From Candidatus Dependentiae bacterium (lineage in GTDB: Bacteria > Babelota > Babeliae > Babelales > RVW-14): a stretch of 64,000 nt of DNA. The position numbers were made by a program, and so were the translations under genes. Each line of letters starts with the position of its first letter. Within the stretch, counting starts at the first letter, position 1. Positions 31,105 to 31,128 of the stretch are shown here, piece after piece. The notes beneath the pieces were generated by a model. It was not told where the DNA came from. It did no database searches and saw nothing but the letters and a program-made list of their open reading frames with translations. The stretch is from the NCBI GenBank assembly GCA_018266175.1, contig JAFEAY010000021.1:248001-312000 (forward strand). The letters run 5' to 3'.

Positions 31105-31128
31105 TCTATCTATCTATCTATCTATCTA
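31105..31128. repeat. Tetranucleotide repeat (TCTA)6 between lptE and holA
   Basis: Six perfect TCTA units (TAGA on the coding strand) fill the interval between the lptE stop codon, which lies inside the repeat, and the holA start at 31104. No purine-rich ribosome-binding site other than the AGA units is present before holA. Confidence 0.95.

What the first reader, a model, noticed from the sequence alone, without database searches (positions are those of the whole stretch)
31105..31128. Six-unit tetranucleotide repeat in the translation-initiation region of holA
(TAGA)6 on the coding strand begins in the lptE stop codon and ends directly at the holA ATG. It replaces the normal ribosome-binding region. 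Such repeats gain and lose units by slippage. Each step would move lptE and holA apart by 4 bases and change the spacing or strength of AGA units, tuning translation of a replication protein. Each TAGA unit also carries TAG, and a 4-base period puts it in all three frames, so upstream ribosomes always stop.
Basis: partly seen in the sequence, partly recalled or inferred. Interest (0 to 1): 0.58.

Follow-up and report, generated by a model that had tools for sequence, protein, structure and literature searches.

The report
TAGA microsatellite stretching the lptE–holA junction
A short, perfectly repeated DNA stretch has grown between two neighbouring genes, from the stop signal of one to the start signal of the next, in a bacterium that carries several unusually long repeats; it could change how much of a DNA-replication protein is made, but whether it ever changes length, or does anything, is untested.

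Summary
(TAGA)6 lies on the minus strand at 31128-31105. It starts with the lptE stop codon and ends at the holA ATG. It is the only run of four or more TAGA units in the 1.83-Mb genome and the longest period-4 tract on its 369-kb contig: 25 nt, next longest 14, Markov simulations 12-15. The gene names hold: folds match the clamp-loader delta subunit and LptE. The repeat is private to this genome: 0 of 77 relatives with a readable holA leader have a period-4 tract over 11 nt there.

There is probably no "normal ribosome-binding site" to replace: only 13 of 77 relatives show a Shine-Dalgarno-like motif before holA, and in 15 relatives with lptE next door the median gap is 2 nt. My best reading is that slippage stretched an SD-less, probably translationally coupled junction from about 1 nt to 21 nt, a range over which published coupling falls steeply. 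The genome is microsatellite-rich (5 tracts of 25 nt or more in 629 kb, against 0 in 1.55 Mb of four relatives) and lacks a detectable canonical MutS. No second strain was available, so length variation and any effect on holA remain untested.

The parts
31105..31129 (-). (TAGA)6 microsatellite; 24 nt in six units, 25 nt of periodic sequence; spans lptE stop codon to holA start codon
31126..31659 (-). lptE: LptE-like lipoprotein, 177 aa; its stop codon TAG (31128-31126) is the first three bases of the repeat
   Evidence: ORF; PF04390 in 3 of 16 orthologues; AlphaFold model of mean pLDDT 84.5 matching LptE/LptDE chains in PDB; lipobox-position Cys invariant in 16 sequences
30127..31104 (-). holA: DNA polymerase III clamp-loader delta subunit, 325 aa; ATG at 31104-31102, no SD-like motif upstream
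   Evidence: ORF; PF21694 in 5 of 29 orthologues; AlphaFold model of mean pLDDT 92.5 whose best PDB match is B. subtilis YqeN, then E. coli delta; SD scoring
31662..32531 (-). rph: ribonuclease PH, upstream gene of the same run (2 nt before lptE)
   Evidence: TIGR01966 273 bits against a cut-off of 141.5

Best explanation
A microsatellite that grew by replication slippage out of the lptE/holA junction (ancestral form probably about ...TAG-A-ATG..., one unit, 1-nt gap) in a genome with generally expanded short repeats. It does not add a ribosome-binding site. Its main consequence is to lengthen the gap between the lptE stop and the holA start from about 1 nt to 21 nt. Because holA has no Shine-Dalgarno motif and in the nearer relatives sits within a few nt of the upstream stop, holA is probably reached mainly by termination-reinitiation. 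Lengthening the gap would then weaken coupling, and unit gain or loss would shift it in 4-nt steps without touching either reading frame. Shown: the tract, its uniqueness, the absence of SD, the short gaps in relatives, the excess of long repeats. Inferred: ancestral length, coupling, direction of the effect, ongoing variability. I regard it as probably not a selected switch.
For: Tract unique and far beyond chance. 0 of 77 relatives with a readable holA leader have a period-4 tract over 11 nt there (max 11 of 48; max 10 of 29). In 15 relatives with lptE directly upstream the gap is -4 to 41 nt, median 2; one unit instead of six would leave 1 nt (sequence). holA leaders SD-like in 13 of 77 relatives. 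On contig C21, genes 21-40 nt after a same-strand gene are SD-like in 20 of 28, those at -8 to 10 nt in 13 of 38 (Fisher p 0.006), so holA (21 nt, no SD) looks like a short-gap gene with a long gap. Published reinitiation falls steeply with distance: about 40-80% loss at 14 nt in E. coli, almost none left at about 20 nt by the abstract (PMC10666635; abstract, passages and one section read). Microsatellite-rich genome: 5 tracts of period 3-6 and 25 nt or more in 628,810 nt, against 0 in 1,550,735 non-N nt of four relatives (binomial p 0.002). MutS1 not found over the cut-off in this genome, found in 21 of 24 genomes searched.
Against: Eight of 28 genes at 21-40 nt on C21 also lack an SD-like motif, so the pattern is not unique. 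Among the 45 farther relatives with an upstream ORF, 21 have gaps over 20 nt, so close spacing is not universal in the phylum. Start codons were chosen by rule; 2 of 29 rows (L019, L021) have a wrong start. E. coli retains some reinitiation at 14 nt and 10-20% at 38 nt in two of three pairs, and no coupling data for this phylum were seen. G009 also lacks MutS1 but has no tract of 25 nt or more in its sample, and tetranucleotide tracts in H. influenzae are reported not to depend on MutSLH (title of a cited paper seen only). No length variant has been seen.
Confidence: 0.55

Rival explanations
1. Selected contingency element: an actively varying tract that tunes holA (and so clamp loader) level in the population through the distance for termination-reinitiation.
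For: Unit change alters only the gap, never a frame; six units is above the length expected by chance; the 1-21 nt range is where coupling changes steeply in E. coli and H. volcanii; AGAT tracts upstream of uspA2 alter expression in Moraxella catarrhalis.
Against: No variation seen (one genome in the genus); six units is short beside the 12-19 unit AGAT tracts; a housekeeping replication gene is an unusual target; the genome's other long tracts (10 more listed) fall in varied places, including coding poly-Q and poly-E runs, which speaks for general expansion.
Confidence: 0.12
2. Neutral slippage tract with no effect: holA is initiated directly at the A/U-rich, SD-less leader, which the repeat leaves open.
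For: Many genes on C21 lack SD-like motifs (about half with the wider motif set); the tract alone folds to no structure, and accessibility of -24 to -1 is near the median of 291 genes (0.49 against 0.47); 21 of 45 farther relatives have holA more than 20 nt from the upstream ORF.
Against: At this gap, C21 genes usually do carry an SD-like motif (20 of 28); the leader's anti-SD pairing is among the weakest 13%.
Confidence: 0.28
3. Regulatory protein- or ribosome-binding repeat array at the start codon, as proposed for TAACTGA arrays in Beggiatoaceae.
For: Position directly before the ATG, stop-rich unit and lack of SD resemble the TAACTGA case.
Against: Single locus in this genome, against 169 TAACTGA sets in BOGUAY (abstract); the other (TAGA)5+ tracts in the phylum (2 other genomes of 101) are not at holA.
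Confidence: 0.03
4. The repeat supplies promoter DNA for holA.
For: The start of the tract contains a TATAGA hexamer (sequence).
Against: The scan of 30900-31500 found no minus-strand sigma-70-type site; the one site found is on +.
Confidence: 0.02

Closest known systems
AGAT tetranucleotide tract upstream of uspA2, Moraxella catarrhalis (PMC7302503, passages read)
   Same: Same cyclic repeat unit (AGAT = TAGA), outside the ORF, perfect tandem units; number of units changes expression level there.
   Different: 132 bp upstream, 13-18 units among the strains listed, acts on transcript level, surface protein; here six units directly abut the ATG inside a gene run, and no variation or effect is known.
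TAACTGA direct repeats of Beggiatoaceae and others (PMC4679880, abstract and sections 9, 13 and 25 read)
   Same: Stop-codon-bearing repeats in the sense orientation within nucleotides of start codons, over the expected RBS, mostly without SD; also before essential genes.
   Different: Heptamer at 169 sites in one genome, suggesting a network; here one tetranucleotide locus.
Termination-reinitiation at short gene overlaps and gaps (PMC10666635, abstract, passages and one section read)
   Same: Co-directional neighbours with gaps of -4 to +10 nt, as in most of the nearer lptE-holA relatives.
   Different: Here the gap is 21 nt and made of slippable repeats.
Simple-sequence-repeat spacers in synthetic ribosome-binding sites (Egbert and Klavins 2012; only the citation seen; content recalled)
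   Same: Repeat length next to the start codon as a dial on translation.
   Different: Engineered, between SD and ATG; here natural, no SD.

Membership tests
Bacterial simple sequence repeat (microsatellite) | perfect tandem units of 1-9 nt beyond chance expectation | tested here: met
   25-nt perfect tract against a 12-15 nt maximum in 10 Markov simulations; the H. influenzae study (PMC2651432, passages) counts tetranucleotide SSRs from 3-4 units
Phase-variable contingency locus | unit number varies within or between strains | not testable with these tools
   only genome of its genus in the held set; no reads available; metagenome scans capped at 0
Phase-variable contingency locus | unit number changes expression | not testable with these tools
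   needs reporter or proteomic data
Translational coupling by termination-reinitiation | overlap or gap of at most about 10 nt | tested here: not met
   21 nt here; but 13 of 15 lptE-holA relatives lie within -4 to +10
Translational coupling by termination-reinitiation | downstream translation depends on upstream translation | not testable with these tools
   experiment needed
TAACTGA-type start-codon repeat network | many loci per genome with the same repeat before start codons | tested here: not met
   one (TAGA)4+ locus in the genome

The most novel reading that the evidence does not exclude
A natural slippage-adjustable translational coupler: a microsatellite grown from a stop codon lets a bacterium without canonical MutS vary, in 4-nt steps and without frameshift, how well ribosomes finishing lptE reinitiate on the clamp-loader gene holA.
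Probability: 0.1. Interest if true: 0.6.

Novelty: new member of a known kind. Interest (0 to 1): 0.3.

Why it matters
Repeats that vary expression are mostly known in promoters or inside reading frames of surface genes. One that changes only the stop-to-start distance in a housekeeping operon would be a simple natural test of how distance governs reinitiation, and of whether loss of MutS lets such spacers drift. As it stands it is one suggestive locus.

Tried and rejected
Rfam scan of 29500-32600: no family. Promoter scan: nothing on the minus strand. Leader structure: the tract alone is unfolded and the surroundings are not unusual among 291 genes, so structure is not the lever. Anti-SD pairing of the repeat: negligible. 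(TAGA)5 elsewhere in the phylum: 3 of 101 genomes, the other two not at holA. Viral-contig scan for (TAGA)5-ATG: none. The search for related loci with the lptE protein gave two weak and probably unrelated hits in Bacteroidota-type records (35% identity over residues 10-55), dropped. MutS loss as the sole cause of repeat growth: not supported, since G009 lacks MutS1 without long tracts. Pfam PF06144 (a delta-subunit domain) is not found in this genome, which argued against the name holA until the fold search. Literature searches listed no paper on a stop-to-start repeat at holA or on microsatellites in this kind of bacterium; that rests on these searches of an open-licence library only, and on their listings.

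Full report
What is there. Window 31105-31128 reads (TCTA)6 on the plus strand, hence (TAGA)6 on the coding strand. The first TAG (31128-31126) is the stop codon of a 177-aa ORF, and the base after the last unit opens the ATG of a 325-aa ORF. Between stop and start lie 21 nt, all repeat. TAG recurs in all three frames, so no start upstream of the tract can be in frame with holA without meeting a stop. The tract is real and beyond chance: 25 nt against 14 for the next longest period-4 tract on the same 368,810-nt contig and 12-15 nt in 10 order-3 Markov simulations. It is the only (TAGA)4 place in the 1,828,519-base genome.

Which genes. Neither protein has a significant Pfam or NCBIfam match on its own, and Pfam PF06144 finds nothing in the genome. 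Orthologues help: PF21694 (delta C-terminal domain) hits 5 of 29 and PF04390 (LptE) 3 of 16. Sequence-profile searches of the PDB found no convincing relative. AlphaFold models (mean pLDDT 92.5 and 84.5) match clamp-loader delta (best: B. subtilis YqeN, E 1.6e-7, with low overall TM-scores near 0.4, as a multi-domain protein with free hinges could give) and LptE chains. Upstream lie rph, pnp and rpsO.

Relatives. The held genomes include no other member of the genus. holA was found in 79 of 85 genomes including its own; 77 relatives had a readable leader (29; G038 had no upstream DNA). None has a period-4 tract longer than 11 nt near the start. In 15 of the 29 closer relatives lptE lies directly upstream, with gaps of -4, -4, -4, -1, -1, 1, 2, 2, 4, 5, 6, 9, 10, 16 and 41 nt; most of the others have rph upstream. 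SD-like motifs occur in 3 of 29 (start codons of L019 and L021 are wrong, so 3 of 27 without them) and 10 of 48. In the 48 farther relatives gaps are broader: of 45 with an upstream ORF, 12 lie at -8 to 10, 3 at 11-20 and 21 above 20 nt; the other 9 overlap by more than 8 nt, which may be wrong starts. So a close, SD-less junction is typical of the nearer relatives only.

Same-genome yardstick. The 16S tail is canonical, and starts on C21 show G enrichment around -9, so SD sequences are used. With a wider motif set, 13 of 38 genes at -8 to 10 nt from a same-strand neighbour are SD-like, against 20 of 28 at 21-40 nt (Fisher p 0.006). holA at 21 nt without SD, and with pairing energy among the weakest 13%, looks like a short-gap gene whose gap was stretched. 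One unit would give TAG-A-ATG, a 1-nt gap. Genes were called by a simple ORF rule, so start positions are approximate.

Why distance could matter. Huber et al. 2023 (PMC10666635; abstract, passages and one section read) report steep loss of reinitiation with gap length in three E. coli and three H. volcanii pairs: in E. coli 5-70% loss at 2 nt, 40-80% at 14 nt and 80-100% at 38 nt; the abstract says about 20 nt almost abolishes coupling. If holA is coupled, six units should give weak coupling and fewer units stronger coupling. This is inference; nothing here measures translation.

Why the repeat is there. In two contig samples (628,810 nt) this genome has five tracts of period 3-6 and 25 nt or more, namely (CTT)9, (TAGA)6, (CAA)18, (AGA)11 and a CCTTTT tract; samples of four relatives (1,550,735 non-N nt) have none (binomial p 0.002). 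There is also a G15 run. The comparison was made after seeing the data, the tract in question is one of the five, and contig samples were not random. MutL is present, but canonical MutS1 was not found (best 94 bits against a cut-off of 641.7; a relative's MutS also finds only weak partial matches), whereas 21 of 24 genomes have it over the cut-off. G009 and G010 also lack it, and the G009 sample shows no long tracts, so MutS loss is at most a contributor; the assembly is 95% complete, so an assembly gap is possible.

Verdict. A true, private microsatellite at an informative place, most simply the product of general repeat growth, with a plausible but untested effect on holA translation through spacing rather than through SD strength. 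The closest precedents are the AGAT tract of uspA2 and the start-codon TAACTGA repeats of Beggiatoaceae. The taxon was not named by any search; I suspect the phylum of Babela-like intracellular bacteria (recalled, untested).

Noticed in passing
G000 genome-wide; weak MutS-like matches at L064-L069: Canonical MutS1 not found over the cut-off in this genome (nor in G009, G010), while 21 of 24 genomes searched have it and MutL is present here.
   Followed up: partly
G000:C21:16770-16784 (L036): A run of 15 G in a 39% GC genome, 85 nt upstream of the longest ORF reading on the minus strand (185 nt from its ATG); a classic phase-variation-like tract.
   Followed up: partly
G000:C25:20035-20089 and 196143-196175 (L200, L208): (CAA)18 coding a poly-Q run inside a 3,750-aa ORF and (AGA)11 coding a poly-E run in a 362-aa ORF.
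   Followed up: partly
G089:C1:65682 (L055, 1501-1522): (TCTA)5 at about codons 4-10 of a 420-aa ORF, where a slip would shift the frame: a possible on/off tract.
   Followed up: no
G058:C28:12538-12585 (L053): (TAGA)12 lying 70 nt upstream of the start of a 150-aa ORF with a signal-like N-terminus.
   Followed up: no
holA leaders, L005-L033 and L070-L117: holA follows rph directly in some relatives and rph-lptE or lptE in others, usually without an SD-like motif.
   Followed up: partly
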